DNA of 64,000 bases from Gammaproteobacteria bacterium (lineage in GTDB: Bacteria > Pseudomonadota > Gammaproteobacteria > Ga0077536). Shown here piece after piece: positions 17,647 through 38,180 of the stretch; position 1 is the first letter of the stretch; each line of letters starts with the position of its first letter. The position numbers were made by a program, and so were the translations under genes. The DNA lies in NCBI GenBank assembly GCA_021773835.1, contig JAJFJQ010000010.1:62001-126000 (forward strand), in the 5' to 3' direction. The notes under the pieces were generated by a model. That model was not told where the DNA came from. It did no database searches and worked only from the letters and a program-made list of their open reading frames with translations.

Positions 17647-17661
17647 CGCGCTAAACCTCGT

Positions 17662-18156: not shown

Positions 18157-18166
18157 GTTGAACTCC

Positions 18167-19042: not shown

Positions 19043-19047
19043 ATCGG

Positions 19048-19831: not shown

Positions 19832-20788
19832 TTAGTCGATAAACATCGAACTGACCGATTGACCCGTACTGATGCGGTTAATGCTCTCTGCAATTAATTC
19901 CGCGACTGTTAGTTGTCGGATCGCCTCACACGCGTGTCCCCGCTCGGTCAGCGGAATCGTGTCGGTTACCACCAATTCATCCAGGCTCGATTGCGAGACG
20001 TTGTCGATCGCCGGCCCCGACAAGACCGGATGCGTACAATACGCCACCACACGCTTGGCGCCGTTCTCCTTTAAGGCATCTGCTGCCTTGCATAGCGTTC
20101 CCGCGGTATCGACCATGTCATCGACGATGACGCAACTGCGGCCGTCAACGTCGCCGATAATATTCATCACCTTGGCCTCATTCGCGCGCGGTCGGCGTTT
20201 GTCGATGATTGCTAGATCGGCGTTATCAAGATGACTCGCCACGGCGCGGGCCCTGACGACGCCACCCACATCGGGTGAGACGATGATGAGATCCGGATAT
20301 TCGTGCTTCCAAATGTCACCGAGCAGAACCGGCGAGGCATAGATATTATCCATGGGCATATCAAAAAAGCCCTGGATCTGCTCGGCGTGTAGATCGAGCG
20401 TCACCACCCGGTCGGTACCAACGGTCGAGATCATATTCGCGACCACCTTGGCGGTGATCGGAACACGTGCGGAGCGAGGCCGGCGGTCTTGACGGGCATA
20501 ACCGAGGTAGGGGACAACCGCGGTGATATAGGCCGCCGACGCACGCCGCAAGGCATCGATCAAGACCAGCATCTCGATCAAATTATCGTTCGTCGGCTGG
20601 CAAATTGACTGCAATACGAATACGTCGCGCCCGCGGACGTTTTCTTCAATTTCGACGTTAATCTCGCCGTCGCTAAAGCGTCCCACTGCCGCCTTTCCAA
20701 GTTTGACCTGCAGGTGCCCAGCCACTGCGCGCGCCAGCGCGGGGTTAGAATTGCCAGCAAACAGCATCATTGTCGAGTCGTCGAGCAT
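19832..20788 (-). CDS. prs: Ribose-phosphate pyrophosphokinase (PRPP synthetase)
   Basis: About 318 residues, the normal class I length. Recognisable parts are [10 protein letters not shown] near the N terminus, the regulatory-flexible segment [16 protein letters not shown], and the PRPP-binding loop [11 protein letters not shown] near 210-220. It makes PRPP from ribose 5-phosphate and ATP. ATG 20788 is preferred because AAGCTAGG precedes it; an ATG at 20803 would add five residues and has only pyrimidines upstream. It lies just downstream of a nucleoside hydrolase on the same strand instead of in the ispE/lolB/pth context common in gammaproteobacteria. It could be an accessory copy feeding the two NAMPT enzymes. 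Confidence 0.93.
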
Positions 20789-20853
20789 ACGCCTAGCTTC
20801 CATAGGTGGAGGTGTTTACGTTCTGATCAATTACGTACGTCACGCGCAATTAC

Positions 20854-21804
20854 TCACGCGTTTCCATACCGACTTAAGCCTTCAAACAACAAGTCGTAGA
20901 AACCGTTGGCATCCACCGTGTGGATCCAATTAACGTTCGGTGGACGATCGGTAACGTGCCAAAAATCCACAGAGGTATGTCCGATTGTCAATTCGGACTG
21001 GGTCTCTACGCTTAGGTTACAGCGCTTGCCTTGGAATAATTCCGGTTTCAACAAATACGCGACGGTGCAGGGATCATGTAAGGGTGCGCCATTGGATCCA
21101 TATTTCGCGGAATCAAACTTATTATAAAAATCCAGCATGGCGGCCGCGGCACGTCCGGGCTCGCTACCAATCGCGCGCAGACGATCTCTGCGTTCTTTGG
21201 TCGATAACACTTGATGAGTGGCGTCCAGCCCCATGACAGTAATTGGTACACCGCTGCGAAACACCCGATCTGCGGCCTGCGGGTCCACGAGAATATTGAA
21301 TTCCGCCGACGGCGAAATATTGCCACCCTCACGCATCGCCCCGCCCATAAGCACAACCTCGGCCACACCGTTTCGTATAGCAGGTTCCTTTGCAAATGCA
21401 GTTGCGATATTGGTTAATGGGCCCATGAGCACCAACGTGATCGGTGCATCCGTCACACCTAGTAAGGCCTCGATAATGAAATCCACCGCATGTGCTTGCC
21501 CCAGCATCGCTCGGGGCTCGACGATAGGGATCCCGTCAATGCCGGTCTTACCGTGCACCTTCTCCGCGGTTACTAATTGACGTTCAAGCGGTTTCTCACA
21601 GCCAGCATAAACTACGATATCGTCGCGGCCGGCGATGTCGCACATCAATCGTGCATTTCTCGTGGTGAGATCTAGTTGAACGTTGCCGGCAACGGTCGTA
21701 ATACCGAGGATATCGAGTTCGTCTGTGCAGGACATTGCAAGAAGCAACGCAATTGCATCGTCCTGTCCGGGATCACAATCGATGATTATTGGCAGTTTTT
21801 CCAC
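20854..21804 (-). CDS. Inosine-uridine preferring-type nucleoside hydrolase (copy 1)
   Basis: A 316-residue ribonucleoside N-glycosidase. The calcium site is seen as DCDPGQDD at 9-16, with the asparagine/ribose loop GNISPSAEFNILVDP near 161-175 and the catalytic His243-Asp244 pair in PLHDP. The start is GTG at 21804, with GGGGAG 7 bases upstream. It releases free ribose from nucleosides, possibly including nicotinamide riboside. It is the first gene of a minus-strand unit with prs (gap about 65 bases) and diverges from the ribokinase operon, which would phosphorylate the ribose. Confidence 0.92.
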   Translation of the reverse strand: MEKLPIIIDCDPGQDDAIALLLAMSCTDELDILGITTVAGNVQLDLTTRNARLMCDIAGRDDIVVYAGCEKPLERQLVTAEKVHGKTGIDGIPIVEPRAMLGQAHAVDFIIEALLGVTDAPITLVLMGPLTNIATAFAKEPAIRNGVAEVVLMGGAMREGGNISPSAEFNILVDPQAADRVFRSGVPITVMGLDATHQVLSTKERRDRLRAIGSEPGRAAAAMLDFYNKFDSAKYGSNGAPLHDPCTVAYLLKPELFQGKRCNLSVETQSELTIGHTSVDFWHVTDRPPNVNWIHTVDANGFYDLLFEGLSRYGNA

Positions 21805-21989
21805 CTAGTGGCTCCCCACACGCCAATAGTTATCCAGCTCACGATCTGCAGTTCGGCCGGTGCGGACGAAGCTGCACGTCGCATGCAACCGTCGATAGCG
21901 CGAAACGTGGTTCAAGTTTGACTCGCCAGGCCAGTCCGTTGGCTGTTCGCACGCGAACGGTAATTGTGACTATAAATTCAGGTCGTGGC

Positions 21990-22006
21990 ACGTTTAATAA
22001 ACGTTT
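21990..22006. promoter_or_regulatory. Candidate LacI-family operator
   Basis: A perfect 15-bp palindrome ACGTTTAATAAACGT (21990-22004) overlaps an AAACGTTT core (21999-22006). AAACGTTT with a central CG is the classic core of LacI-family operators such as those of RbsR and PurR. The site is in the divergent intergenic region next to a LacI-type gene and its target-like operons. Confidence 0.45.
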
Positions 22007-22148
22007 CTAGCTTGGAATCATAATGGATTGTCCCATATGTTCAAGCCATTGATCCGGCGCTAGGTGTAACGCTCGCGCGACGAAAATTACTGGCGTCGAC
22101 CAGAATTGAGCATTTCTGCATAATATCGGTATTGTCAATCAGTTATGC

Positions 22149-22158
22149 TTAACGTTTG
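22149..22158. promoter_or_regulatory. Second, weaker LacI-type operator half-site
   Basis: TTAACGTTTG shares the AACGTTT core with the stronger site 145 bases away, which would allow a looped or two-site arrangement. It is not a full palindrome. Confidence 0.25.
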
Positions 22159-22507
22159 ATTGAGTAAAATCATTTTCGCGTCCAAATCAAGGATGTTTCA
22201 GCCACTTCCGGGTTGCGCTTCGCCGGTCCGGCCCGTCAAGACCAAGTGCCTTGACGACCATTTATGCCTCGACTAATGTAGAAACGAATATAACAATGCG
22301 AGATCCGCGGAATCGGGATACCAAGCTTGATCGGTTCTCATCGACTGGAGCGCACATGTGACCGCGTAAGCAGGCACGAGGCGGTTACCGAATATATAAC
22401 TAGAATTTGCGATACCGCGCGGAGTGGATCGTGACCAAGCGGCATGTCTAGTTGCCCAATCCACAAAGTAGGCTGTCCCATTCCCCCCAATTGGAGGCAA
22501 GTGTCAA

Positions 22508-23284
22508 ATGAGTTCAAGCAAATCCTCAACGCTACGTGTATTGGTCGTCGGCGAATCCTGGATCAAGCATATTATTCACCTAAAAGGTTTCGACGAATTT
22601 CACTCGACGGAATACGAAGAAGGTGCCGGGATTTTTCTTGGTGCGCTCGCTGATGCCGGCTACGACATCACCTATATACGCGCGCATGAGGTATCGATGC
22701 GCTTTCCAACAACACGCGCCGAGCTCGACAAGTTCGACGTGGTCATCTTGAGCGATATTGGATCAAATTCATTCCTGTTGTGCGATGAGACTTGGCATCG
22801 TTCGGAACGCACGGTAAATAGGCTGAGCTTGATCGCCGACTATGTCGAAGGTGGCGGTGGTCTCTTGATGGCCGGCGGCTATATGTCGTTCACTGGCATC
22901 GACGGGCGCGCGCGTTATCAAGCGACACCGCTGGCAGCGGTGCTGCCAGTCAGCATGCTTGATCGTGACGACCGTGTGGAGGCGCCTGAAGGTATCGTCG
23001 CGACGTTTCGGCACCCTGAACACCCGGCACTTGGCGGCACACCTGCGGAGTGGCCGATCCTGCTTGGTTATAATCAATTGAAGGGAAAACCAGGGGCGAC
23101 CGTGATCGCGGAATACAACGGTGACGCGTTGCTTACTGTCGATACTGTTGGCAGCGGGCGGGCGGTGGCCTTCGCCTCGGATGTCGCGCCGCATTGGGCG
23201 CCGCCTGAGTTCATGGCGTGGCCTCATTACGCAAAACTATGGGCCTCCATCGTATCTTGGGCTGCCGGCGGTAGCGACAACTAG
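22508..23284 (+). CDS. STM3548-like protein with class I glutamine-amidotransferase-like fold
   Basis: A 258-residue cytoplasmic protein of the group typified by Salmonella STM3548 (flavodoxin-like, glutamine-amidotransferase-related fold). Typical features are LVVGESWIKHIIHLKGFDEF at the N terminus, FDVVILSDIGSN near 80, a Gly-rich GGGGLLMAGGYMSF segment near 115 and WPHYAKLW close to the C terminus. There is no Cys nucleophile elbow, so amidotransferase activity is doubtful. Such proteins often sit with LacI regulators and ribokinases in sugar or nucleoside operons, as here. GGAGG precedes the ATG, and the LacI gene starts 3 bases after its stop. Confidence 0.78.
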   Translation: MSSSKSSTLRVLVVGESWIKHIIHLKGFDEFHSTEYEEGAGIFLGALADAGYDITYIRAHEVSMRFPTTRAELDKFDVVILSDIGSNSFLLCDETWHRSERTVNRLSLIADYVEGGGGLLMAGGYMSFTGIDGRARYQATPLAAVLPVSMLDRDDRVEAPEGIVATFRHPEHPALGGTPAEWPILLGYNQLKGKPGATVIAEYNGDALLTVDTVGSGRAVAFASDVAPHWAPPEFMAWPHYAKLWASIVSWAAGGSDN

Positions 23285-23287
23285 ACG

Positions 23288-24343
23288 ATGACAATATCTC
23301 GATTAACGTCGAGTCAACGCCCGACAATGAAAGACGTCGCGGTGCGCGCGAACGTGTCCGTAAGTACGGTTAGCTACGTGTTGAACGGCACCGGTCCCGT
23401 CAGCGCCGATCGTCGAGCACGGGTACTCAACGCCGTACGCGAGCTGGACTACATACCGAACGAGTCGGCGCGCAATTTGAAGCGACAATCGGCCTCGACT
23501 ATCGGACTCGTCGTACCGGATTTGTCTAACCAGTTCTTTACGCTACTCGCTAGTGGCGCGGCGCACGCGGCGGCCGAGCGCGATGTGCTGGTCGTACTGT
23601 GCAGTTCCGAAAGTACCGAAGAAGCGGAATCCAGTAATGCTCGGCTGCTAAGGAGTCAACGTGTTGATGGGGTCGTCTATCTCACTGGCTTTGACGAGTC
23701 GCCAACGTCTCTACTCAAACTCCAATCACTCGGACCTGTCGTACTAGTCGACGAGCGTGTTCCGGGGGCCGACCTGCCGGCGGTACTCGCGGACGGTCGA
23801 CGTGGCGCACGTGACGTGGCGGCACATGTAGTTGGTCTTGGCCATAAGCGCTTTGCCTGTATTGCGGGACCGACCGCATTGTGGACCGCCGAACAACGCC
23901 TAGCCGGCTATCGTGAAGCGCTAGCGCTCGGCGGTCTTGACCCTGACCGCATGGAAGTCGTGATCGGTGACTACCGAATGAATTCGGGCTTTAGATTAGC
24001 CAAACAGGTATTAGATGTCCCAGTGCATCGGCGACCGACGGCGTTGCTGTGCGCGAACGACATGATGGCGATTGGCGCACTCGAATATTGTCGCGCCAGT
24101 GGCCTCGACGTGCCCGGAGATGTGAGCGTGGTCGGCTTCGACGATGTGCCGATGGCACCGCTTCTTTCTCCAAGACTTACCACAGTGCGTCAACCAGCGC
24201 GGGAAATGGGGGTGCACGCAGCAGAATTGCTCTTGGATCTTATTCGCGGTGACGCTAAACCCGACGCGCCGAAGTCGTTTCCGGTCGAAGTGATCGTGCG
24301 TGAATCTGCGGCACCGCCTCGGAGTTTGTGGACAAATGGCTGA
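23288..24343 (+). CDS. LacI-family transcriptional regulator
   Basis: A 351-residue regulator. The LacI helix-turn-helix covers about residues 13-34 (MKDVAVRANVSVSTVSYVLNG), followed by the hinge helix SARNLKRQ and a periplasmic-binding-protein-like effector domain with the typical D-G-V-V-Y-L and D-M-M-A-I-G segments. It sits between the STM3548-like gene and ribokinase and overlaps the latter by 8 bases. It probably responds to ribose, a nucleoside or a phosphorylated sugar and binds the palindrome in the divergent region 1.3 kb upstream. Confidence 0.92.
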   Translation: MTISRLTSSQRPTMKDVAVRANVSVSTVSYVLNGTGPVSADRRARVLNAVRELDYIPNESARNLKRQSASTIGLVVPDLSNQFFTLLASGAAHAAAERDVLVVLCSSESTEEAESSNARLLRSQRVDGVVYLTGFDESPTSLLKLQSLGPVVLVDERVPGADLPAVLADGRRGARDVAAHVVGLGHKRFACIAGPTALWTAEQRLAGYREALALGGLDPDRMEVVIGDYRMNSGFRLAKQVLDVPVHRRPTALLCANDMMAIGALEYCRASGLDVPGDVSVVGFDDVPMAPLLSPRLTTVRQPAREMGVHAAELLLDLIRGDAKPDAPKSFPVEVIVRESAAPPRSLWTNG

Positions 24344-25277
24344 ACGCGTTGTAGTTGTTGGGGCGATCAACACTGACTTTGTGATTTCGGCGTCGCGTCT
24401 ACCGGCGCCGGGTGAAACCGTTGTTGGTGGTGGCTTGCAAACCTTTGGCGGCGGTAAGGGCGCCAACGCAGCGGTCGCGGCAGCACGGGTGGGGGCTCGC
24501 GTGTCACTTATTGGTGCGGTTGGTGCAGATGATTCAGGCAAACGCGCACTGGACGAACTTTCGCGCGATAAAGTCGATACCAGCGGTGTCGCCGTACTCG
24601 ACGATGAGCCGACTGGCGCGGCGCTGATCGTGGTGGATGCCAATGGGGAGAACCAAATAGCACTCGGACCGGGCGCCAATGGCGCTGTGTCAGCGGAGCA
24701 TGTGCGTACTGCATTATCGACACTGCTCCCGACTACCGATGTTGTCTTAGTCAGCACGGAAATTCCGTTGGCCGCTGTCAGGGCGGCGATTGAAACAACG
24801 ACCGAGGCGAGGGTGCAATGCGTTCTGAATCCCGCACCTGTGATAGCTAGACTCGTCGACGTGCTACCGCTGCGCCCGATACTAACGCCAAACGAAATCG
24901 AACTTGGGGATCTAGCGCGCGCATTCTCCGGGGCCGTAGCGCCTGCAGGCGAAGACAAAATTCTAAATCAACTTCATCGTGTCGGCGAACAAACGCAAAG
25001 TCCGGTTATTGTCACCCTCGGTGGTGACGGTTGCGCAGTGCGTCTGGCGAATGGTGAGGTTGAACGGATCCCAGCTCGAGGCGCCAATTCGGTCGTCGAT
25101 ACAACTGGCGCGGGTGACACATTCAACGGGGTATTCGCCGCCCGCTTGGCGGCCGGCGATGCCATTATGATTGCGATCAAAACTGCTGTTGTCGCCGCTT
25201 CGATATCAGTCTCAGCCGTTGGGGCTCGACCGGGTATGCCGAACGCTGCTGCAATAGCCGGTGTGTTTCGCGAGTGA
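24336..25277 (+). CDS. rbsK: Ribokinase (PfkB family)
   Basis: A 313-residue PfkB-family sugar kinase. The substrate-site motif GGGKGANAAVAAAR is at 38-51 and the anion-hole/base motif DTTGAGDTF starts at 255, giving catalytic Asp261. This fits ribokinase length and pattern. ATG 24336 overlaps the lacI stop by 8 bases, consistent with coupled translation. It would convert ribose, for example from the adjacent nucleoside hydrolase, to ribose 5-phosphate, the substrate of the nearby prs product. Specificity for ribose over other sugars or nucleosides is inferred from context. Confidence 0.87.
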   Translation: MAERVVVVGAINTDFVISASRLPAPGETVVGGGLQTFGGGKGANAAVAAARVGARVSLIGAVGADDSGKRALDELSRDKVDTSGVAVLDDEPTGAALIVVDANGENQIALGPGANGAVSAEHVRTALSTLLPTTDVVLVSTEIPLAAVRAAIETTTEARVQCVLNPAPVIARLVDVLPLRPILTPNEIELGDLARAFSGAVAPAGEDKILNQLHRVGEQTQSPVIVTLGGDGCAVRLANGEVERIPARGANSVVDTTGAGDTFNGVFAARLAAGDAIMIAIKTAVVAASISVSAVGARPGMPNAAAIAGVFRE

Positions 25278-25307
25278 ATAAACATGCATTTTTGCAAGGA
25301 GAGTTCG

Positions 25308-25379
25308 GTGACGACGACACAAGCAATAGCGAGAATGAGAACGCAAATTTTCCGACGATGCTTAGAAGGAGGTAGTTAA
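25308..25379 (+). CDS. Possible 23-codon leader peptide coupled to the cupin gene
   Basis: GTG at 25308 with AAGGAGA 5 bases upstream opens a 23-codon frame whose TAA stop overlaps the ATG of the cupin gene (TAATG). It contains the cupin gene's own ribosome site (AAGGAGG) in its last codons. The peptide is basic (RMRTQIFRR). It has no domain. Coupled translation or attenuation is possible, but chance cannot be excluded at this length. Confidence 0.3.
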   Translation: MTTTQAIARMRTQIFRRCLEGGS

Positions 25380-25918
25380 TGGCCGCTTCACGCAGTCGCG
25401 CAAAATCGAAAGGGGCTGAGATACGGGCCTCGGTGCAAATACGCGAAAACCGATTTCCACGTCACATCGCACACACCGATATCGCGGCAATGCCACGATA
25501 CCGTTTTGTTAAAGGGATGGAGAGCGGGATATTTATCTCGCGCGAACACGATGAGTCGAGGTTTTATAGCCAAGGTCTGTGTTTCCACGACGCTGACATG
25601 GATGACCTCGTGTGGGATGAAGTGAGTTGGGACGAGGCGTTTTACTGCATGAAGGGCCAGCTCGTCGTGATTGTGGAGGATGTCGAAGGCAATGCTGCAA
25701 CATTCACTATCGACGAAGGTGATCATTTCTGGGCGCCGGCCGGTTACAAATACACCTTGCGCGCTTCCGGGGTCGATTCAATTAACTTCTGGACGATGGC
25801 ACCGGTCTTGCACAGCGGCTGGCGCGATACCGGCGATCCTGCGGGGCCCGCCTACAGCGATATGCTATCTAATACCGGTAAACCACCGAAAAAAACCAGT
25901 CGGAAAAGGAAACGATAA
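25379..25918 (+). CDS. Cupin protein, EutQ-like (copy A)
   Basis: A 179-residue single-domain cupin. The N-terminal 30 residues are basic and disordered-looking, the barrel covers about 35-150 (PRYRFVKGMESGIFISRE..., then DEAFYCMKGQLVVIVED and EGDHFWAPAGYKYTL), and the tail is Lys/Arg-rich. The usual metal ligands are only partly present: the first motif has Glu/Tyr in place of His-x-His. So it may bind a ligand without metal, as EutQ-type cupins do. AAGGAGG precedes it. A paralogue is at 26548-27000; each is followed by a PPOX-fold gene. Confidence 0.75.
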   Translation: MAASRSRAKSKGAEIRASVQIRENRFPRHIAHTDIAAMPRYRFVKGMESGIFISREHDESRFYSQGLCFHDADMDDLVWDEVSWDEAFYCMKGQLVVIVEDVEGNAATFTIDEGDHFWAPAGYKYTLRASGVDSINFWTMAPVLHSGWRDTGDPAGPAYSDMLSNTGKPPKKTSRKRKR

Positions 25919-25919
25919 G

Positions 25920-26468
25920 ATGCCTGTCACGCAATCAGATATTGCGCCGTTGACCGGCGCGGCGCTCTGGGGCTACCTAGAAAAAGCCACGACAATGCGG
26001 CTTGCTACTGTCACCGGTAGACAAGCGATAGAAGTCTCTCCCGTATGGTTTGTGGTCAGGCGGGAGACGATCTACTTTCCGATCGATCCGACCGTTGGAG
26101 ATCCAGGTCGCGCGGCCACGCCAGCGTCACGACACCTACCCGCGTTGGATTCCAACAACGCGAAAGTGTCTGCCGTTATCGATGATGGAGAGGATTTGAC
26201 GAACTTCCGCGGTGTACAGGTGGCGGGTAAGGCCACGCCCGTAGCAGGTGCGAAACTCACCGAAGAGTTGCTTGACTTGACGCTGGAAAAATATTTCTAC
26301 ATTGGACACCCACATTTAGAACACTATTTAAGCCGCGGCGCGCTCGAGTTGCGCCGCTGGTTTTGCTTGGTTCCCGACCGCATGGATGGTTGGGATCGAC
26401 GGCTATTACCGCAGCCGCCGATTTTGGAACGCAGAATTCTCCCACCTCACTTAAGAGGCAACAAATGA
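25920..26468 (+). CDS. Pyridoxamine 5'-phosphate oxidase-like (PPOX) protein, copy A
   Basis: A 182-residue split-barrel flavin-binding-type protein. It has the N-terminal helix GAALWGYLEKATTMRLATVT, a strand segment PVWFVVRRETIYFPID, and the C-terminal EKYFYIGHPHLEHYL...GWDRR segment shared with copy B at 27013-27555. The ATG at 25920 comes 1 base after the cupin stop, so the two are coupled. FMN, F420 or haem could be the cofactor; the role is unknown. A longer open frame to 25671 overlaps the cupin gene and is not real. Confidence 0.75.
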   Translation: MPVTQSDIAPLTGAALWGYLEKATTMRLATVTGRQAIEVSPVWFVVRRETIYFPIDPTVGDPGRAATPASRHLPALDSNNAKVSAVIDDGEDLTNFRGVQVAGKATPVAGAKLTEELLDLTLEKYFYIGHPHLEHYLSRGALELRRWFCLVPDRMDGWDRRLLPQPPILERRILPPHLRGNK

Positions 26469-26547
26469 GCGACCCAGCCGACCCATCAGGGAACAGGCTG
26501 CTGTTGTTGGTTTAAAACGATATCGATATCAGAAGGAGGAAGTGGCT

Positions 26548-27000
26548 ATGAGCGCCAAAGAGCAGTTAGAAGCGAGTCCGCAACGCTATCCGAAGGTAAT
26601 GCCCGCCGATGAGATCGAAGCGATGCCACGCTTGGAATTCAATACGGGTATCGATACGGGAATTTTTATTTCACAAGAACGCGAGGATGCTCGTTATTTC
26701 AGGCAAGGCGTTTGCTATGCCAAGGCCGATCACGAGCCAGTCCACTGGACTCAATCGAATTTCGATGAGGCACAGTATTGTATCTCTGGGATGATCCGCC
26801 TAAGAGTGGAGGACGCCGCCGGCAAGGTGGTCGTGCTAGAGGCGCAGCCGGGGGACAACATCTACCTGCCTGCGGGATATACCTATACGCTCGAGGCAAC
26901 CGGGGTCGAATATACCTTCCTATGGACCAGTGGTCCGTCGAACCGGCCGGGAATTGTCGAGGCGCCGGGTTATAGCAAACAGCTACGCGCATTGCGTTGA
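26548..27000 (+). CDS. Cupin protein, EutQ-like (copy B)
   Basis: A 150-residue cupin clearly related to copy A (shared pattern P-R-x-x-F-x-x-G-x-x-x-G-I-F-I-S and the PAGYxYTLxAxGV core). It lacks copy A's basic tails. ATG 26548 has AAGGAGGA 7 bases upstream, and GTG 26542 is too close to that site. The metal-ligand positions are again degenerate. It precedes the second PPOX gene by 12 bases, so the pair copies the arrangement immediately upstream. Confidence 0.75.
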   Translation: MSAKEQLEASPQRYPKVMPADEIEAMPRLEFNTGIDTGIFISQEREDARYFRQGVCYAKADHEPVHWTQSNFDEAQYCISGMIRLRVEDAAGKVVVLEAQPGDNIYLPAGYTYTLEATGVEYTFLWTSGPSNRPGIVEAPGYSKQLRALR

Positions 27001-27012
27001 GGGAGTACTAAC

Positions 27013-27555
27013 ATGGCATTAATAGAAAGCACGCAATTCGTCGAAGTTACGGCCAGCATGGCCGCGCCGCTGCGGGGTAAGAAACGCTGGGCCTATCTCG
27101 AACGCCAAAAAACATTCCGCCTGGCGACGACGAACGAGGACGGGTCAATTTATCTCTCGTCTTTATGGTATGTGATACAAAACGAGACCATTTATCTACC
27201 AGTCGATGCGGCCGGAAAGCATGGCGTTAATTTCGAAGCGCAACGGAATCTAGCCGGACTTGTCGATAGCGGTGACGAATTTTCAACCGTGGCTGGCGTG
27301 CGGATTTTCGGATCGATCGAAGTGGTAGACGACCCCGCCTTGTTTGATGCGTTACAAGACCTTGTATTCGAAAAGTACTTTTACGCCGGCCACCCCTACG
27401 CGGAACATTACTTTGCGTTCGGGAATACTGTCGGACGCAAGTACTACGCCCTTACGCCAACAAAAATGATCGGCTGGGATTCGCGTGAAATTTCGCCGCC
27501 GCAGGCTGTAGAAGCGCGCCTGCTTCCAGACTTCGTAACCGACCGGCGTATTTGA
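27013..27555 (+). CDS. Pyridoxamine 5'-phosphate oxidase-like (PPOX) protein, copy B
   Basis: A 180-residue PPOX-fold protein with the helix KKRWAYLERQKTFRLATTN, the strand SLWYVIQNETIYLPVD and the C-terminal EKYFYAGHPYAEHYF...GWDSRE segment. All are aligned with copy A. GAGGGAG precedes the ATG. It belongs to the same transcript as the two cupins and is followed 77 bases later by the divergent NAMPT gene. Likely a flavin-dependent or cofactor-binding partner of the cupin; substrate unknown. Confidence 0.77.
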   Translation: MALIESTQFVEVTASMAAPLRGKKRWAYLERQKTFRLATTNEDGSIYLSSLWYVIQNETIYLPVDAAGKHGVNFEAQRNLAGLVDSGDEFSTVAGVRIFGSIEVVDDPALFDALQDLVFEKYFYAGHPYAEHYFAFGNTVGRKYYALTPTKMIGWDSREISPPQAVEARLLPDFVTDRRI

Positions 27556-27632
27556 TAGAAGTGCGATACCCCGACCTTCATTGGCCGGGACATCATCTAC
27601 GTTTGCATAGCATCTGATCAAGAGGGTCAAAC

Positions 27633-29093
27633 ATGGGTTTCGACAACATCATCATCAACACCGACAATTACAAGCATTGTCACTACTCCTTGTACCCGCC
27701 TGGCACCGAGTATATCTCTAGTTACGTCGAGTCCCGCGGCGGCGAATTTCAATCGACGCTGTTCGTTGGACTACAGGCGTTTCTGCGCGAATACCTCATG
27801 CATCCAATCACATTGGAAGATATTGACGAAGCGGAATTCATCGAGCGTGAACAGGGCATGCACTTCAATCGTGATCTGTGGCTCGGTGTCTTAAACGACC
27901 ATGGCGGATATCTGCCGGTCGAGATCGAGGCGGTCCCGGAAGGGACGGTAGTGCCACCAAGAAATGTTTTAGTGCAGCTCATCAATACCGATCCGAAATA
28001 CTGGTGGGTGACGAGCTTTTTTGAGACCGCGTTGCTGCGGGCGATTTGGTATCCAACCACGATTGGAACGATCAGTTGGCTTGCGAAACAGGTGATCCGC
28101 GATGCGCTCGAAAACACATCTGATAACCCGCAAGTATTGCGCCACATGCTGCATGATTACGGTGCACGCGGTGTAAGCTCGCAAGAGTCCGCCGCGCTTG
28201 GCGGCTTAGCCCATTTAGTCAATTTTAGTCAGAGCGACACGGTGCCGGGCATCATTGCAGCGAAGCGTTACTATAATGCTGGCCACGTGTCGAACTCGGG
28301 CCCGAACTCAGAACATGCTGGATTTTGTGCGTGGGGCAAGGAGAATGAAGCGGCTGCGTTGCGCAACATGCTTGAAATGTACAAAGACAACGGCGTAGCC
28401 CTCCTACTAACAGACACCTACGACCATGAAAATTGTGTCAAAAACATCATCGGCGGCGAACTCAAGGAAGCGATTCAAAATTTCCCGGGTCTGGTCGGTG
28501 CACGACCGGATTCCGGTGACGTTGTGCAGGTAACCGCCGACACGACCGAATGGCTGATGGACGCATTTGGCTACGAGACCAATTCCAAAGGTTTCAAAGT
28601 GCTGCCGCCGTACCTCCGTGTGGTGCAGGGAGACGGGGTAAACTTTTATGCGCTACCCGAGATCTTCATCGAACTTGAACGTCGCGGTTTTTCTGCGGAG
28701 AACGCAATATTCGGCATGGGTGGCGGCTTATTGCAGCATCACAACCGCGATACAATGAATTTTGGCCAGAAGGCGAACGCAGTCTGCGTGAACGGCGTGT
28801 GGCGCGATATCTTCAAATCACCTACCGGGTCGGAAATGAAGGTTTCGAAAAAAGGTCGGCTCGCACTCAAATACGAAAACGGGATCCACACAACAGTACC
28901 GCGAGATTCGATCAAGCCTGAAGAAAATGAACTCGTACCGGTATTTCGTAATGGCAAGTTGCTCAAGAAATGGGACTTCACCGAAGTGATCGAAAGAAGC
29001 GAACGGGAGTATCCGGAATCTTATTACAGCGATGTGGTGAAGCCATTACGCGAAGCACGCAGTGCAAGCGGCGCTAAGTCGTCCGCGGGATAA
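27633..29093 (+). CDS. nadV: Nicotinamide phosphoribosyltransferase-like enzyme, divergent copy
   Basis: A 486-residue NAMPT-fold protein, full family length. Residues matching human NAMPT are seen: Tyr13 (human Tyr18), Tyr176 (Phe193), Asp202 (Asp219), phospho-acceptor His228 (His247) and Arg291 (Arg311). However, the loop after the His is AGFCAWGKENE where canonical enzymes and copy 2 have STITAWGKDHE, and SDSYD is LTDTYD. It probably makes a ribonucleotide from PRPP and nicotinamide or a related base. Specificity may differ from nicotinamide. It follows the cupin/PPOX pairs and is 15 bases from a HAD phosphatase gene. Confidence 0.85.
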   Translation: MGFDNIIINTDNYKHCHYSLYPPGTEYISSYVESRGGEFQSTLFVGLQAFLREYLMHPITLEDIDEAEFIEREQGMHFNRDLWLGVLNDHGGYLPVEIEAVPEGTVVPPRNVLVQLINTDPKYWWVTSFFETALLRAIWYPTTIGTISWLAKQVIRDALENTSDNPQVLRHMLHDYGARGVSSQESAALGGLAHLVNFSQSDTVPGIIAAKRYYNAGHVSNSGPNSEHAGFCAWGKENEAAALRNMLEMYKDNGVALLLTDTYDHENCVKNIIGGELKEAIQNFPGLVGARPDSGDVVQVTADTTEWLMDAFGYETNSKGFKVLPPYLRVVQGDGVNFYALPEIFIELERRGFSAENAIFGMGGGLLQHHNRDTMNFGQKANAVCVNGVWRDIFKSPTGSEMKVSKKGRLALKYENGIHTTVPRDSIKPEENELVPVFRNGKLLKKWDFTEVIERSEREYPESYYSDVVKPLREARSASGAKSSAG

Positions 29094-29108
29094 TAAGGAC
29101 CCCATATT

Positions 29109-29732
29109 ATGAGCTGCCTGCATGTCTTCGACATGGATGGAACCCTATTGATCGGATCAGCCTGCATAGAAATATCGCGTGCCGTTGGCTTCTATGAGGA
29201 GAACGTCGCGATCCAAGACGCCTGGACAGACGGAAAACTTAGCGACAGCGGGTATTGGGAAAACTGCCTCCCACTTTGGAGCGGGTTGTCGGAAAAGCAG
29301 ATCGATAAGGCCTTCGCCGACACTCAATGGCTCGATGGTGTCGAATCCGTCCTCCGCGACATTCAGGCCCGCGACGAGCACAGCATTACTATTTCGCAGT
29401 CGCCCCGATTTTTTGTCGAGCGGCTCAAGGCGTGGGGACTTGGCGAGGCGTTTGGCGCCGAGGTTACCCCCGGGAATGCCGCCGGCGCTGAACAGATGGT
29501 TTCTAGTGAAGATAAACTCAAAATCACAAATCGCCGACTTCGCGAGCTCGGACTCTCCATTGATGAGTGCGTGGTCTATGGCGATTCCAATTCTGATCTC
29601 GCGCTGTTCGAGAACCTCCGACATACCGTCGCTGTCAATGCCGAAGAGCGGATCCGAAAACTCGCGAGCGCCACCTATGACGGGGGCGATTTGTGGGACG
29701 CCTATATGGCCGGCCGCAAACTATTGGATTAA
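29109..29732 (+). CDS. HAD-superfamily phosphatase
   Basis: A 207-residue HAD hydrolase of the phosphoserine-phosphatase-like (IB) type. Motif I is FDMDGT with nucleophile Asp8 and Asp10, motif II is the Ser in TISQSP near 97, Lys in SSEDKLK gives motif III, and YGDSNSDLALF near 157 is motif IV. AAGGA precedes the ATG. Directly after a NAMPT-like gene, it may dephosphorylate the nucleotide product or remove a dead-end nucleotide. The substrate is inferred. Confidence 0.83.
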   Translation: MSCLHVFDMDGTLLIGSACIEISRAVGFYEENVAIQDAWTDGKLSDSGYWENCLPLWSGLSEKQIDKAFADTQWLDGVESVLRDIQARDEHSITISQSPRFFVERLKAWGLGEAFGAEVTPGNAAGAEQMVSSEDKLKITNRRLRELGLSIDECVVYGDSNSDLALFENLRHTVAVNAEERIRKLASATYDGGDLWDAYMAGRKLLD

Positions 29733-29808: not shown

Positions 29809-30246
29809 ATGGCTGAAGCAATTGCGCGATCAAAAACGGCAGAGACACTCGCCGATGCAAGCTCCGGGGAACGTGACAAGAGCCGCCGTGAGACAATCAT
29901 CCGCTTCGGTAGCGCCTGGGCCGCAGGCGATGTCGATGGTTTGATGAGTCTGATGAGTGATCAGCCACGTTATCGGGGATCAACAGGTCCCGAGCCCGGG
30001 ATCGAATTTGTCGGATCGGAACAAGTTCGTGCCGCCTTCGAACGGATCGCTGGACCCAATGCAGGATCACCGCCTGCTGAACCCGCCCCACCGCCTGAGA
30101 TGTATTTTTTCGAGGATCGAGCGCTCGCCTTCTGGCGTCTTAAATTTCCTGGCTCTGATTGCTTAGTGGAAGGTGTCGATGTGATGACATTCACGGACGA
30201 TGGGCGCATCGCGGTCAAGGATGCCTACCGCAAGGCGTTCAGTTAA
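29809..30246 (+). CDS. SnoaL-like (NTF2-fold) protein
   Basis: A 145-residue NTF2/SnoaL-type protein, with the standard opening helix ETIIRFGSAWAAGDVDGLMSLMS and GSEQVRAAFERIAG, ending in strands with GVDVMTFTDDGRIAVKDAYRK. Such domains serve as hydrolases, isomerases or binding proteins. A GCGAGGTG motif precedes the ATG. It lies between the HAD phosphatase and gcvT, 76 bases after the first and 163 bases before the second. No catalytic pair could be assigned with confidence. Confidence 0.75.
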   Translation: MAEAIARSKTAETLADASSGERDKSRRETIIRFGSAWAAGDVDGLMSLMSDQPRYRGSTGPEPGIEFVGSEQVRAAFERIAGPNAGSPPAEPAPPPEMYFFEDRALAFWRLKFPGSDCLVEGVDVMTFTDDGRIAVKDAYRKAFS

Positions 30247-30409
30247 ATGCCAGGCTGCCGGTAGGATCTATCTTATTTTGCGCTAGAGATTCCGCGCGAA
30301 TTCCGCTGAATTCTTTCGGCGTGACACGTCTATACCCGCGTCTACAAAGGTGCCATCATGGCCGTGCCGCCTCACCCGAGATGCGGACCCGAACGGACCT
30401 TTGATTTCG

Positions 30410-31546: not shown

Positions 31547-31565
31547 ACAAAGGAGGACCTACGTC

Positions 31566-34918: not shown

Positions 34919-36394
34919 TCAATACGCGTTAGAGGTAAAATCGGCGTCGAAATCGTCGGACATGATCGACTCCCAATAGTACTTCGGCACCTCTTGCTCT
35001 GAACGAGCAATGAGTTCTTTAAAGTGCTGCCGTTTAATCAACTTACCATTGCGGAACACGGGCTCGAGCAGATTCTCGCTTTCCGGCACAGAATCGCGTG
35101 GCACGGTTTTGTAGTCGCCGTTTTCCTTCACCAGCGCAAGACGCCCGGCCTTGGATTCTTTAAGCCCCGAGTCAGACGGTTTTTTGTTGACGGCGCGCCA
35201 TTCTCCATTGACCTTCGCCGCATTGGCTTTCATCGCGAAATGCATCGAGTCCCGATTGACCTGTTGCAGTAGTCCGCCGCCCATGCCGAAACCAACATTC
35301 TCCGCAGAAAGCTTCCGCTTATGCATCTCTTTATAGATATCTTTAAGGCTGTTGATGTTGATCCCGTCACCTTGGCAGATGCGAAGGCATGAGGGCAGCA
35401 CTTTGTAACCCTTGGTGTTGACCTCGTGGCCAAAGCTCTCCATCAACCACTCGATCGAATCTGCGACGACGGTTGGCGGGTGGCCCGAGTCCGGGCGAAC
35501 AAAAATTGGGGATTTTGCATTCTCGACTAAGGACTTTAACTCTTTGCCCCAAATATTCTTGATCGCATTCTCTAGATCATACGAGTCGGAGACGACGACG
35601 ATATATGGCCAGCCGTCATAGGCCTCGACTAAATTGCGATAGGCATCGGCTTCGTGGTCTTTGCCCCAAGCAGTGATCGTGGAGTGTTCCGCGGAAGGAC
35701 TTGAAATACCGGTCGCCGGCATTCCGTAATAGCGCATGGCGGCTACCGAACCCGCCATAGTATCGGTCTGGTGGAAATTGACAAGATGGGCCATGCCCCC
35801 AACCGCGGCAGACATTTGAGAGCTAACCCCCCGCGCACCGTAGTCGTGCAACAGCGCGCGAATGATCCCTTCAGGATCATCTGCGCTCTCTATCAACGCT
35901 TGTCGAATGATCTGTTTACACATCCAACTCAAGGTGCAAACAGTCGACGGATACCAGACCCCACGCAAAAAAGCGGTCTCTATGAAGCTTGTGACCCAAT
36001 AGTATTTCGGATCGGTATTGACGATCTGCACCATCACATTCCGTACCGGGATCACGGTTCCTTCAGGAATTGCTTCGATCTCAACGGGCAGATATCCATC
36101 ATAGTCATTGAGGACGCCCATCCAACCTTCCCGATAAAAGGGAATTTCATGCCACTCGCAAACCAATTCAGCTTCATCGATGTCCGCCAGCGTGATTGGC
36201 TTCATCAAATATTCCATGATGAAGGCCTGCAGTCCCATATGCACAACGGCAGGAAATGGACCGCCGCGCGCTTCGATATAGCTCGAAATATATTCGGTTC
36301 CGGGTGGGTATTGAATGTAGTGAGAATGCTTATAGCAGTCCGTGTTGAGAAGTATATTGCCTAAATCACCCATTTTATTCATGACATCTGACAC
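34919..36394 (-). CDS. nadV: Nicotinamide phosphoribosyltransferase, canonical copy
   Basis: A 491-residue NAMPT. The active-site segment SAEHSTITAWGKDHE (His237) matches the human enzyme word for word, as does VSDSYD, and Arg300 lies in VRPDSG. It condenses nicotinamide with PRPP to NMN. The start is taken as GTG at 36394, because GGGAG lies 8 bases upstream; ATGs at 36382 and 36373 are alternatives without a site. It is on the opposite strand to the divergent copy and to gcvTHP. Downstream of pncC on the same strand, it suggests an NMN-making and NMN-deamidating pair. Confidence 0.92.
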   Translation of the reverse strand: MSDVMNKMGDLGNILLNTDCYKHSHYIQYPPGTEYISSYIEARGGPFPAVVHMGLQAFIMEYLMKPITLADIDEAELVCEWHEIPFYREGWMGVLNDYDGYLPVEIEAIPEGTVIPVRNVMVQIVNTDPKYYWVTSFIETAFLRGVWYPSTVCTLSWMCKQIIRQALIESADDPEGIIRALLHDYGARGVSSQMSAAVGGMAHLVNFHQTDTMAGSVAAMRYYGMPATGISSPSAEHSTITAWGKDHEADAYRNLVEAYDGWPYIVVVSDSYDLENAIKNIWGKELKSLVENAKSPIFVRPDSGHPPTVVADSIEWLMESFGHEVNTKGYKVLPSCLRICQGDGININSLKDIYKEMHKRKLSAENVGFGMGGGLLQQVNRDSMHFAMKANAAKVNGEWRAVNKKPSDSGLKESKAGRLALVKENGDYKTVPRDSVPESENLLEPVFRNGKLIKRQHFKELIARSEQEVPKYYWESIMSDDFDADFTSNAY

Positions 36395-36789
36395 GTAACC
36401 TGCTCCCGTAGTTGGCAATGAAATTAGTGACCGTGAACACATTCCCGACGTTTTTTTGGTCTTCGGGATACGACCTACTTATTTACGCCTTATTCGAGAC
36501 GCACTTCTGCCGGATGGCTCTGCCGACCTGCTAAGAGCCGTAGAATTCTCCATCCGATGGTAGCTGTAATCAGTCCGGAATCCGCGACTAGGCGTCACCC
36601 CATATTAATCGCGTGTATAAAGCCTCTGGTAACGTACTCTTTCGGTCTAGCTGGTGTCAACTGAGGGTTTTTATTTGCCAGTTCAGCGGCTTATGCACAC
36701 CTCACCATCGACGTCCGGGGTCCGAGACTGCCACAGCAACATCAATTTCGAGCACAAATGTCGAGCAATTTCTGATGCTTTGATTTTGC
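36395..36789. other. Leader and promoter region of the canonical NAMPT gene
   Basis: About 395 bases without a supported gene lie between pncC and the NAMPT start, both on the minus strand. I saw no strong hairpin or clear promoter and cannot recognise an NAD-class riboswitch by eye. Confidence 0.35.
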
Positions 36790-37287
36790 TCAATTGTCCT
36801 CTAGTTGGGCGACGATGAGGTCCAAGGCTTCGGCCACTGCAGCCAAGCGCACCTCGTTGCGTGAACCCGCTAGAACGACTCGGCGTTCCGTCGTAGGTTT
36901 CCCGCTACTTGCCGCTGCAAAATAGCAAGTCCCGACGGGATCGCGATCGTTACCGCCCCCCGGTCCGGCATATCCAGTCACAGCTACGCACACGCCGGCG
37001 GTTGAGTTATCGAGACCGCCTTGCGCTAGACCTTTAGTGACCTCGGCACTAACCACGCCATGTTGCTTCGATACCTCATCAGGTACGCCGAGACCAGTTG
37101 TCTTGGCAATCGTGTGATAGAGCACAAAGCCTCTCTCGAAAACTGCCGAGGCACCCGGCACCGAGGTCAAACACGCTGAGACGAGTCCCGCAGTACAAGT
37201 TTCGACCGTCGCAATCCGCACATCGGCGGCCTTGGCCACGTCTAATGCCCGCGATGCCTTACTTAAAAGTTCGCTCGAGAATTCCAT
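36790..37287 (-). CDS. pncC: Nicotinamide-nucleotide amidase, PncC/CinA C-terminal family
   Basis: A 165-residue stand-alone CinA C-terminal domain, the family that deamidates NMN to nicotinate mononucleotide. The glycine-rich TGYAGPGGG is at 104-112, and the Tyr/Lys pair of the active site is seen in LYHTIAK at 57-62. The usual ESCTGG is ETCTAG at 29-34, so the Ser usually given as nucleophile is Thr here. GAGGTG precedes the ATG. With NAMPT downstream it would convert NMN towards the nicotinate branch of NAD synthesis. Confidence 0.85.
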   Translation of the reverse strand: MEFSSELLSKASRALDVAKAADVRIATVETCTAGLVSACLTSVPGASAVFERGFVLYHTIAKTTGLGVPDEVSKQHGVVSAEVTKGLAQGGLDNSTAGVCVAVTGYAGPGGGNDRDPVGTCYFAAASSGKPTTERRVVLAGSRNEVRLAAVAEALDLIVAQLEDN

Positions 37288-37337: not shown

Positions 37338-38111
37338 CTAAGCAAATTTCAATGCATCTCCTGCAAATGATCTGGCCGCTTCAGCCGGATCTTTGGCGCC
37401 ATAAATGGCGCGGCCGATAACTGCGTAGGCATTGCAGCCCTTTGCCACTTTGAATGTGTCATGGATATTGCCCCCAAGCGGCCCGATACCGGGAATAAAG
37501 ATGCTCGGATTGGACACTCGCTCGGGTAGCCTTTTCGCGTGGTGACGTACCTTCTTAGCGTTATTACCAGGCACGATAAAATGCGTCGCGCCTGCGTCAA
37601 TCGCACGATCAAAGATCTTGTCTAAGGAATTATTGACGACATAGCCGCCGCCGCGCGCATTGTAGTCTTCTAGTGGCAGATCGCCACCAACCACCGGCAG
37701 TAATCCATTGTTGATCGCCTCACCAACGAACCGGTCAACTGCTCTGGGGCCTGCCAAGGGAAATAGAATCAATCCGTCGACACCGGCATCTTTGCATACG
37801 GCGGCAAACTTCCCCGCCATATCAGGCACATCCGGTCCGGCTTTCTGATGGTCATAGAGGATCGGGAGATCAGTGACCTCGCGCAGATCAGCTACCGCTG
37901 CCTTTAGGCCCGCGCTCAGTGTCAACGTAAGACCAAGCTTGTACGCGACAACACCCTCAACGTTGGTCGTCGCTTCGATTAACGATTTAGCCGCATCCAT
38001 GGATTCGATATCGAGCGCAGGTACGACGCCATGCGTCGTCGCCATTTTAACGACCTTCTTTTTCCTCGACTTTATTGTCGTCCGTTTTGTTTTTGCCTTC
38101 GCCTTTGCCAT
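37338..38111 (-). CDS. Orotidine 5'-phosphate decarboxylase-like protein
   Basis: A 257-residue OMP decarboxylase-superfamily barrel. The catalytic segment DHQKAGPDVPD (87-97) keeps the Asp-Lys-Asp array seen in archaeal-type OMP decarboxylases (DHQKAGTDIPD). It ends with AVIGRAIYGAKDPAEAA, the phosphate-binding strand. An unusual 20-residue Lys/Arg-rich N-terminal tail precedes the barrel. ATG 38111 has AGGTGA 6 bases upstream, while GTG 38117 is too close. It lies between pncC and an amidohydrolase, not with pyrimidine genes. It may be the cell's PyrF or a paralogue with another phosphoribosyl or sugar-phosphate substrate. Confidence 0.78.
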   Translation of the reverse strand: MAKAKAKTKRTTIKSRKKKVVKMATTHGVVPALDIESMDAAKSLIEATTNVEGVVAYKLGLTLTLSAGLKAAVADLREVTDLPILYDHQKAGPDVPDMAGKFAAVCKDAGVDGLILFPLAGPRAVDRFVGEAINNGLLPVVGGDLPLEDYNARGGGYVVNNSLDKIFDRAIDAGATHFIVPGNNAKKVRHHAKRLPERVSNPSIFIPGIGPLGGNIHDTFKVAKGCNAYAVIGRAIYGAKDPAEAARSFAGDALKFA

Positions 38112-38180
38112 GTCCACTCACCTAATAATTATTATCGCTGTGGTTCGCCAACTCGCTACGGCCTGTTGCCAACTGTTACA

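What the first reader, a model, noticed from the sequence alone, without database searches (positions are those of the whole stretch)
19832..29732. Nucleoside-to-PRPP-to-nucleotide module: hydrolase, ribokinase, PRPP synthetase and NAMPT together
Seen: nucleoside hydrolase and prs on one strand, facing STM3548-like protein, LacI regulator and ribokinase, followed by a NAMPT-like enzyme and a HAD phosphatase. Known: these enzymes catalyse nucleoside to base plus ribose, ribose to ribose 5-phosphate, then PRPP, then base plus PRPP to nucleotide. Inference: the set could rebuild a nucleotide from a salvaged nucleoside, such as nicotinamide riboside, without a nucleoside kinase. I know of no described operon that carries all four steps side by side.
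Basis: partly seen in the sequence, partly recalled or inferred. Interest (0 to 1): 0.75.

Follow-up and report, generated by a model that had tools for sequence, protein, structure and literature searches.

The report
Sugar-tagging genes for pyridine-ring breakdown
The four enzymes belong to a gene set found in many unrelated bacteria, including one proven pyridine-eater, that probably attaches a ribose-phosphate tag to a stubborn nitrogen ring so it can be broken, then recycles the tag; if so, it would help explain how microbes attack pyridine.

Summary
It overlooked two cupin and two PPOX-type oxidoreductase genes between ribokinase and NAMPT. The co-occurrence is conserved, not local: among 57 relatives of this NAMPT (63% identity or more; Actinomycetota, alpha- and gammaproteobacteria), HAD lies nearby in 49, LacI 47, PF07090 44, prs 44, ribokinase 39, nucleoside hydrolase 32 and a LOG-type phosphoribohydrolase 14; none in 14 outgroup NAMPTs. 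The module comes with one of two mutually exclusive cassettes: (i) an LLM monooxygenase set, carried on a plasmid of a strain that grows on pyridine; (ii) cupin plus PPOX, often with F420 genes, as here. Proteobacterial hosts of (ii) have the F420 gene CofE (8 of 8, against 4 of 298 others). The cassettes interchange on the NAMPT tree. No step has been assayed, and the published pyridine pathway, as I recall it, has no such tag.

The parts
19832..20803 (-). prs, ribose-phosphate pyrophosphokinase: R5P to PRPP; second prs of the genome
   Evidence: NF003428 above cutoff; two prs over the TIGR01251 cutoff in G000, this one and C21; prs near NAMPT in 44 of 57 related loci
20854..21804 (-). nucleoside hydrolase (IU_nuc_hydro): proposed release of ribose from the spent nucleoside
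   Evidence: PF01156 2.6e-100; an NH in 32 of 57 loci; the NHs of the window, A. crystallopoietes and DK176 clusters are only 31-34% identical
22508..23284 (+). PF07090 GATase1_like protein (role unknown, conserved in module)
   Evidence: PF07090 1.6e-97; 44 of 57 loci
23288..24343 (+). LacI-family regulator
   Evidence: PF00356, PF13377; 47 of 57 loci
24336..25277 (+). ribokinase-type PfkB kinase: ribose to R5P (ORF opens at 24300; ATG at 24336 is the likelier start)
   Evidence: PF00294 2.7e-57, TIGR02152 254.5 bits, below cutoff 299.65; 39 of 57 loci
25379..25918 (+). cupin1
   Evidence: no Pfam hit of its own; 36.5% identical to cupin2 and 64% to a protein at the same place in Rhodococcus DK176
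25920..26468 (+). PPOX1, split-barrel flavin/F420-type oxidoreductase (start inferred; ORF opens at 25671)
   Evidence: PF01243 3.4e-07; 48% to Rhodococcus DK176 at the same place
26542..27000 (+). cupin2, cassette (ii); carries none of the usual cupin metal His
   Evidence: weak PF00190; cupin2-type gene in 32 of 57 loci; W69/Q71/Y115 at the canonical His positions, as I align the recalled motif; cupin fold, nearest Ni-quercetinase 5flj
27013..27555 (+). PPOX2, cassette (ii): proposed F420H2-dependent reduction of the N-ribosyl ring
   Evidence: PF01243 2.8e-11; best NCBIfam TIGR03618 Rv1155_F420, below cutoff; model resembles Rv2991, MSMEG_3380 F420 reductase and Rv1155+F420, but also FMN/FAD- and heme-binding folds; 30 of 57 loci
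27633..29093 (+). NAMPT-A: proposed loader of phosphoribose onto a pyridine-type ring N
   Evidence: NF006629 above cutoff, PF18127; clade of its own; pocket changes G217Q 58/58, F193Y 57/58, A244N 55/58
29109..29732 (+). HAD-IB phosphatase: proposed removal of the 5'-phosphate
   Evidence: TIGR01488 just above cutoff; 49 of 57 loci, median 1.2 kb from NAMPT
29809..30246 (+). SnoaL-like protein that recurs with cassette (ii)
   Evidence: PF12680; 13 of 32 type ii loci, 0 of 14 type i
34919..36442 (-).
   Evidence: NF006629 558 bits; 56% to NAMPT-A; tree
36790..37287 (-). CinA/PncC-type amidase-like gene that travels with NAMPT-B
   Evidence: TIGR00199 over cutoff; found in 4 of 4 NAMPT-B loci
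37338..38117 (-). OMP-decarboxylase-like gene that travels with NAMPT-B
   Evidence: PF00215 6.5e-14; canonical pyrF is elsewhere, C48; present in 3 of 4 NAMPT-B loci, L058-L060, with a conserved DxxKxxxD motif

Best explanation
A catabolic module that uses phosphoribose as a removable activating tag. NAMPT-A transfers phosphoribose from PRPP to the ring nitrogen of a pyridine-type compound, giving an electron-poor N-ribosylpyridinium nucleotide, as nicotinamide becomes NMN+. A cassette then opens the ring. Here and in the other type ii clusters this would be F420H2-dependent reduction by PPOX to a dihydropyridine, followed by opening with the cupin (and SnoaL). In type i clusters an LLM monooxygenase, aldehyde dehydrogenase and amidohydrolase do it. 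The tag is recovered by the HAD phosphatase plus nucleoside hydrolase (ribose) or a LOG-type phosphoribohydrolase (R5P); ribokinase and the dedicated Prs rebuild PRPP. Shown: gene content, its conservation, cassette swapping, the F420 link, a distinct NAMPT clade and pocket, and one type i host that grows on pyridine. Inferred: every reaction, the substrate (pyridine or a simple pyridine) and the order of phosphatase and ring opening.
For: Module conserved with NAMPT-A in 57 loci and absent from 14 outgroup NAMPTs. Of 51 loci with at least 13 kb, 32 hold all five of HAD, PF07090, LacI, ribokinase and prs. The two ordinary plasmid NAMPTs examined sit with NUDIX or NMN adenylyltransferase/NUDIX instead. 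Cassettes exclude each other: 14 type i, 32 type ii, 0 both, 11 neither. On plasmids the 12 records with NAMPT-A at 60% or more split 6 LLM / 6 cupin2 with no overlap. Types interleave on the NAMPT tree: with the 46 usable typed rows alone, 7 label changes, of which starred branches force 6, so the loader stays while the ring opener changes. A type i cluster lies on a plasmid of Rhodococcus PD04, which grows on pyridine as sole carbon and nitrogen source (PMC11256795, whole text). F420 genes (cofC/H/E or FGD) lie in 14 of 32 type ii loci against 0 of 14 type i; FGD passes TIGR03554 in the two scanned. CofE in 8 of 8 proteobacterial type ii genomes, absent from the one proteobacterial type i genome tested, in 4 of 298 other Pseudomonadota. 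Of 32 type ii loci, 18 carry one aldehyde dehydrogenase family, 6 another (2 both), and 12 a CoA-transferase; that of DK176 has succinate-glutarate CoA-transferase as its best family (329 bits, below its 750 cutoff). This fits the glutaric-dialdehyde route reported for Nocardia Z1 (PMC3637104, passages). NHs and prs differ in lineage between clusters, as if recruited more than once.
Against: No enzyme was assayed. As I recall its abstract (Casaite 2020, AEM.00902-20; not held), the published Arthrobacter 68b pathway has a two-component flavin monooxygenase cleaving free pyridine directly, with no ribosylation. D219, which contacts the carboxamide in human NAMPT (recalled), is kept in 57 of 58 NAMPT-A, odd for a ring without carboxamide. 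The window's genome has no close match to the type ii aldehyde dehydrogenase (best 40%; its congener G003 has a 62% partial one) or CoA-transferase (41%) and no FGD over cutoff, so later steps and the F420H2 source here are unknown. An NH or LOG is within reach in only 32 of 51 long loci. PPOX2 is below its family cutoff, and its fold neighbours include FMN/FAD- and heme-binding proteins. Cupin2 lacks the usual metal ligands, so its step is unassigned. PF07090 has no role in the model. No type ii host was tied to growth on any substrate.
Confidence: 0.55

Rival explanations
1. One reading: the operon salvages a nucleoside such as nicotinamide riboside by splitting it and rebuilding the nucleotide from base and PRPP.
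For: All four activities are present and the chemistry closes; D219 is kept in NAMPT-A.
Against: Conserved partners are catabolic cassettes; the NAMPT pocket differs from outgroup NAMPTs; 14 of 57 loci add a LOG-type phosphoribohydrolase that would destroy the product; no NAD-synthesis gene is annotated beside NAMPT-A in the five annotated plasmid stretches read, unlike the two ordinary NAMPTs looked at.
Confidence: 0.08
2. Support role: the ring-opening enzymes act on the free heterocycle, and the NAMPT/Prs set keeps up NAD or repairs damage, for example when pyridine displaces nicotinamide in NAD; NH, LOG and HAD clear pyridine nucleosides and nucleotides.
For: The published type i pathway, as recalled, needs no ribosylation; D219 kept; NH, HAD and LOG would suit clearance of a faulty nucleotide.
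Against: No NMN adenylyltransferase is annotated in the five plasmid stretches read (the other loci were not screened for it). A NAMPT clade with a changed, near-invariant pocket is unexpected for plain nicotinamide salvage. The set lies as close to NAMPT-A as the cassette genes do (median distances).
Confidence: 0.2
3. The module makes an inducer: NAMPT-A and HAD or NH turn the heterocycle into a nucleotide or nucleoside sensed by the LacI regulator.
For: LacI is conserved in 47 of 57 loci; its best NCBIfam hit is the nucleoside-sensing CytR (below cutoff; ligand recalled).
Against: An inducer needs no dedicated Prs and ribokinase for flux; no shared operator was found.
Confidence: 0.07
4. 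Same tag-and-recycle logic but for another heterocycle (substituted pyridine, nicotinate derivative, pyridinium alkaloid or other azine), with pyridine itself used only by type i hosts. This overlaps with the best explanation and shares its mechanism.
For: The window lineage has two extra genes (cupin1/PPOX1) shared with DK176, WAY2 and L053, a Mo-hydroxylase/CoxG operon next to prs, and NAMPT-B with CinA and an OMPDC-like gene; no type ii host was tied to a substrate here.
Against: Type i and ii NAMPT-A interleave on the tree and are highly similar, suggesting one shared substrate class.
Confidence: 0.35

Closest known systems
Pyridine-degradation pyr cluster of Arthrobacter sp. 68b (pyrABCDE; Casaite 2020, recalled, not held)
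   Same: Type i cassettes have the same kinds of enzyme: LLM monooxygenase, flavin reductase, aldehyde dehydrogenase and amidohydrolase, with succinate-semialdehyde dehydrogenase in two of these three
   Different: The published route (recalled) attacks free pyridine with no ribosylation. The window has none of these cassette genes at the thresholds used but has cupin/PPOX. I could not read whether the paper discusses the NAMPT module.
Reductive pyridine routes of Nocardia Z1 (via glutaric dialdehyde) and Bacillus 4 (via succinate semialdehyde), as cited in PMC3637104
   Same: Two ring-opening outcomes in the literature parallel two cassettes: type ii with glutarate-like CoA-transferase, type i with SSADH
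   Different: Genes were not identified in the passages seen; no ribosylation mentioned there
NadV/NAMPT nicotinamide salvage
   Same: NAMPT-A is in NF006629 with the NAMPT_N domain; Y18, R196, D219 and H247 positions kept
   Different: Different neighbours, separate clade, changed pocket
F420H2-dependent hydride transfer to picrate (Nocardioides; PMC10649934, passages)
   Same: F420 reduces an electron-poor aromatic ring
   Different: No ribosyl tag; nitroarene instead of pyridinium

Membership tests
NAMPT (NadV) family | NAMPT_N plus NAPRTase domains, NF006629 above cutoff | tested here: met
   516.7 bits, cutoff 405; PF18127, PF04095
NAMPT (NadV) family | same residues as outgroup NAMPTs at the nicotinamide pocket | tested here: not met
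   G217Q 58/58, F193Y 57/58, A244N 55/58, V242G 54/58; outgroup G 14/14, F 14/14, A 14/14, I/V 14/14; D219 kept 57/58; roles of these residues recalled
NAMPT (NadV) family | makes NMN from nicotinamide | not testable with these tools
   needs enzyme assay
NAD-salvage operon | adenylyltransferase or NUDIX gene beside NAMPT | tested here: not met
   none annotated in the five plasmid stretches; present in the two control plasmids; other loci were not screened for it, and for the window only the genes beside NAMPT-A were classified
Type i pyridine (pyr-like) cluster | LLM monooxygenase, flavin reductase, aldehyde dehydrogenase, amidohydrolase | tested here: not met
   none in the window at the thresholds used; the window's LLM is 19% identical to the pyr-type LLM and its amidohydrolase 34%
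Type ii NAMPT-A cluster (defined here) | NAMPT-A with cupin2 and PPOX2 plus HAD, PF07090, LacI, RK and prs | tested here: met
Type ii NAMPT-A cluster (defined here) | host has F420 synthesis (CofE) | tested here: met
   CofE in G000 and G003; other F420 synthesis genes were not searched in G000
Type ii NAMPT-A cluster (defined here) | close glutarate-route genes (ALDHc, CaiB) and FGD in the genome | tested here: not met
   best ALDHc 40%, CaiB 41%, no FGD over cutoff in G000; these genes are not seen in many other type ii loci either
F420-dependent PPOX (TIGR03618) | score above curated cutoff | tested here: not met
   34.7 bits, cutoff 79.05; fold neighbours include F420 reductases and others
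Cupin dioxygenase | two-His-plus-Glu and third-His metal motif | tested here: not met
   W69, Q71, E76, Y115 in the 20-row alignment; motif recalled and placed by eye
Phage-type NAMPT/NARP systems | close relatives in phages | tested here: not met
   1905 phage records match, all below 60% identity

The most novel reading that the evidence does not exclude
A general aerobic strategy not found in my searches: N-heterocycles are made reactive by covalent phosphoribosylation with a NAMPT-derived transferase, are reduced or oxygenated as N-ribosylpyridinium nucleotides (reduction by F420H2 in type ii), and the sugar tag is recycled to PRPP by genes in the same cluster. In the window a second branch (NAMPT-B, PncC-like amidase, OMPDC-like decarboxylase) would bring nicotinamide or a pyridine carboxylate, as nucleotide, down to the same pyridinium nucleotide.
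Probability: 0.45. Interest if true: 0.92.

Novelty: new variant of a known kind. Interest (0 to 1): 0.8.

Why it matters
How aerobic bacteria first attack unsubstituted pyridine has been hard to pin down for decades (recalled: early reductive routes had no active extracts). If a phosphoribosyl tag is needed, extracts would need PRPP and, for type ii, F420H2: a simple experiment. It would also give NAMPT a catabolic role, give F420 a function in nitrogen-heterocycle breakdown in proteobacteria, and provide a marker gene set for pyridine-type degradation in genomes and plasmids.

Tried and rejected
Phage NAD-restoration type system: rejected, as phage NAMPTs are all below 60% identity and prs here is canonical. 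Glycine cleavage genes (gcvTHP, 30350-34897) as part of the module: rejected, seen in the classified loci only in the same genus (L063). Cupin as an Fe dioxygenase that cleaves the ring: lowered, metal ligands missing although the fold search ranks Ni-quercetinase first. LacI operator search for a shared palindrome: nothing useful; promoter and terminator scan near chance (promoters 4 against 8.4 expected, terminators 16 against 12.7). RNA families and tRNAs in the window: none. De novo neighbour clustering was swamped by shadow ORFs in high-GC loci; it was useful only for spotting LOG and FGD.

Limits of counts: identity thresholds per family were set by me; the NH threshold (30%) is at superfamily level, those for cofC and cofE are low (28%, 32%). 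Of 74 scan loci, L087 and L088 (fragments) were left out; the plasmid locus L014 was left out too (its row has no module genes). Several loci share a genome (L023/L052, L049/L050, L019/L057, L020/L060, L032/L059, L063/L065). Rhodococcus plasmids H3-H7 and H8-H10 look like near-copies (equal scores). The 14 outgroup NAMPTs came from the same pattern scan, so they are not a random sample of the family. Trees dropped L065 as a fragment. The first tree (76 rows) gave higher change counts (8 and 15) because 11 loci with neither cassette, some merely truncated, counted as a third state; I use the typed-rows tree (46 rows). L040 holds two NAMPTs and the longer ORF was taken; its branch is long. The single type i proteobacterial genome tested (L046) is a MAG of unknown completeness. 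The CofE comparison counts related genomes (G000/G003, L015/L016).

Literature: Casaite 2020 and Watson and Cain 1975 are not held; what I say of them is recall, except the Nocardia Z1 / Bacillus 4 summary seen as passages in PMC3637104. In the rows listed by searches I saw no paper joining pyridine breakdown with phosphoribosylation; some searches listed only part of their hits (20 of 550, 20 of 85, 30 of 43, 20 of 202), and subscription journals are mostly outside the library. Other papers seen: passages of PMC7356986 and PMC10005059, which added nothing used here; the latter lists some Rhodococcus strains, R. pyridinivorans IEGM 1137 among them, as not growing with pyridine.

Full report
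WHAT IS THERE. The window is a 64 kb piece of a 6.1 Mb genome; the closest loci fetched come from gammaproteobacterial MAGs. Between ribokinase and NAMPT lie four genes it did not list: two cupins and two split-barrel PPOX oxidoreductases, in alternating order. The same run of cupin1, PPOX1, cupin2, PPOX2, NAMPT, with HAD at the other end, sits on a Rhodococcus plasmid (DK176) at 48-64% identity.

CONSERVATION. A scan of one genome per species with the NAMPT-A clade gave 74 loci. With three plasmid loci added and two fragments left out, 75 loci were classified: 57 NAMPT-A (63% or more), 4 NAMPT-B and 14 outgroup. Near NAMPT-A: HAD 49/57, LacI 47, PF07090 44, prs 44, ribokinase 39, NH 32, LOG 14; the same search gives 0/14 for each in the outgroup. 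Of 51 loci holding at least 13 kb, 32 have all five of HAD, PF07090, LacI, ribokinase and prs. Of 96 genomes of the window's kinship, its own included, only 5 have any NAMPT match; of three congeners one carries this type. A cupin2 search found only the window's own genome among 398 Pseudomonadota. The set is thus rare and patchy there and probably mobile: on the tree the four gammaproteobacterial rows, the window's included, lie among actinobacterial ones.

TWO CASSETTES. 14 loci carry an LLM monooxygenase, usually with aldehyde dehydrogenase (12), tautomerase (10) and amidohydrolase (9) (type i); 32 carry cupin2, 30 of them with PPOX2 (type ii, as here); none has both and 11 have neither, some of them truncated. 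On plasmids this repeats: 12 records have NAMPT-A at 60% or more, the LLM gene is in 6 of 72,556 records, cupin2 in another 6, and together they are exactly the 12. On a NAMPT tree of the 46 usable typed rows the two types are interleaved: 7 label changes, of which starred branches force 6. The loader and recycling genes are therefore the constant part, and the ring opener is exchanged.

SUBSTRATE. Rhodococcus PD04 grows on pyridine as sole carbon and nitrogen source (PMC11256795, whole text) and its plasmid holds a type i cluster. Type i also lies on plasmids of R. pyridinivorans P23 and A. crystallopoietes. For type ii, PMC3637104 (passages) reports that Nocardia Z1 cleaves pyridine between N and C2 via glutaric dialdehyde. 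Of 32 type ii loci, 18 carry one aldehyde dehydrogenase family, 6 another (2 both) and 12 a CoA-transferase; the DK176 CoA-transferase has succinate-glutarate CoA-transferase as its best model, below cutoff. No type ii host was tied to a substrate here, and the window's own genome lacks close copies of these later genes.

F420. Type ii loci carry cofC, cofH, cofE or an F420-dependent glucose-6-phosphate dehydrogenase in 14 of 32 cases, type i in 0 of 14 (the two FGD proteins scanned pass TIGR03554). F420 is rare in Pseudomonadota: CofE in 5 of 299 genomes, the window's own included. It is in the window's genome and its congener and in 6 of 6 other proteobacterial type ii genomes, but not in the one proteobacterial type i genome tested. 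Fisher one-sided p for 8/8 against 4/298 is 2.8e-13, and 7.3e-12 for 7/7. The window's genome has no FGD over cutoff, so its source of F420H2 is unknown. The PPOX2 model is closest to Rv2991 and also resembles F420-binding MSMEG_3380 and Rv1155, alongside FMN/FAD- and heme-binding folds.

NAMPT. NAMPT-A and NAMPT-B form one clade apart from 14 outgroup NAMPTs (100/100, stem 1.36), with the NAMPT-B rows on two branches just below NAMPT-A. At positions matching human NAMPT: G217 is Q in 58/58, F193 is Y in 57/58, A244 is N in 55/58 and V242 is G in 54/58, whereas the outgroup keeps G, F, A and I/V. D219 is kept in 57/58. That these residues line the nicotinamide pocket is recalled. The pocket has changed, but D219 argues against a wholly different ligand.

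MECHANISM. Proposed cycle: heterocycle + PRPP to nucleotide (NAMPT-A); ring reduction and opening (PPOX2/cupin here; LLM set in type i); phosphate and sugar removed (HAD then NH, or LOG in one step); ribose to R5P (ribokinase); R5P to PRPP (Prs). The second prs, the ribokinase and the differing lineages of NH (31-34% identity) suggest selection for ribose recovery rather than inheritance of a fixed block. The order of dephosphorylation and ring opening is open. Cupin2 has W, Q and Y where metal-binding His are usual, so a metal-free hydrolytic or isomerising step is more likely than dioxygenation. Every reaction is inference.

SECOND SET. NAMPT-B travels with a CinA/PncC-type gene in 4 of 4 loci and an OMPDC-like gene in 3 of 4 (a cyanobacterium and two Pseudonocardia), with HAD in both Pseudonocardia and prs in L060. 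A possible reading is phosphoribosylation, deamidation and decarboxylation at nucleotide level, feeding the same pyridinium nucleotide. The OMPDC-like active-site motif is DxxKxxxD rather than DxKxxD (the standard motif is recalled), so the decarboxylase assignment is weak.

VERDICT. The most likely function is a phosphoribosyl-tag cycle for opening a pyridine-type ring (0.55). I found no paper that describes it in the rows listed by the searches named in Tried and rejected, but the key pyridine papers were not available to read.

Noticed in passing
window 34919-38117 (-); L058-L060, L063: NAMPT-B, CinA/PncC-like and an OMPDC-like gene form a second conserved set, with HAD in L059/L060 and prs in L060; may decarboxylate a pyridine carboxylate at nucleotide level.
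   Followed up: partly
window 13197-19521 (-): Mo-hydroxylase operon (large, small and FAD subunits, CoxG, CoxD- and CoxE-like) directly downstream of prs; CoxG also sits in the module in L015 and L016. A similar large subunit lies at 8813-11200.
   Followed up: partly
L022, L023, L024, L026-L029, L031, L034, L038, L039, L053, L056, L084: LOG/TIGR00730 phosphoribohydrolase-like gene near NAMPT-A (14 of 57 loci, 10 of them with an NH as well), a possible one-step alternative to HAD plus nucleoside hydrolase.
   Followed up: partly
window 40151-40897 (+) and 39662-40108 (+): Distant phosphoribosylanthranilate-isomerase-like protein beside a PPOX gene that passes the TIGR03618 F420 cutoff; another phosphoribosyl-type enzyme family in the neighbourhood.
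   Followed up: no
window 44833-45825 (-): Second nucleoside hydrolase, closer to the Arthrobacter cluster NH (35%) than the first one is (31%).
   Followed up: no
G000 (whole genome): 76 matches to the F420-dependent G6PDH/LLM model, none over cutoff, and a CofE gene: probably an F420-rich gammaproteobacterium, unusual for the phylum.
   Followed up: partly
L049, L050 (Methyloligella sp. GL2): An alphaproteobacterium carries two NAMPT-A copies about 17 kb apart with cofH, cofC and cofE genes nearby.
   Followed up: no
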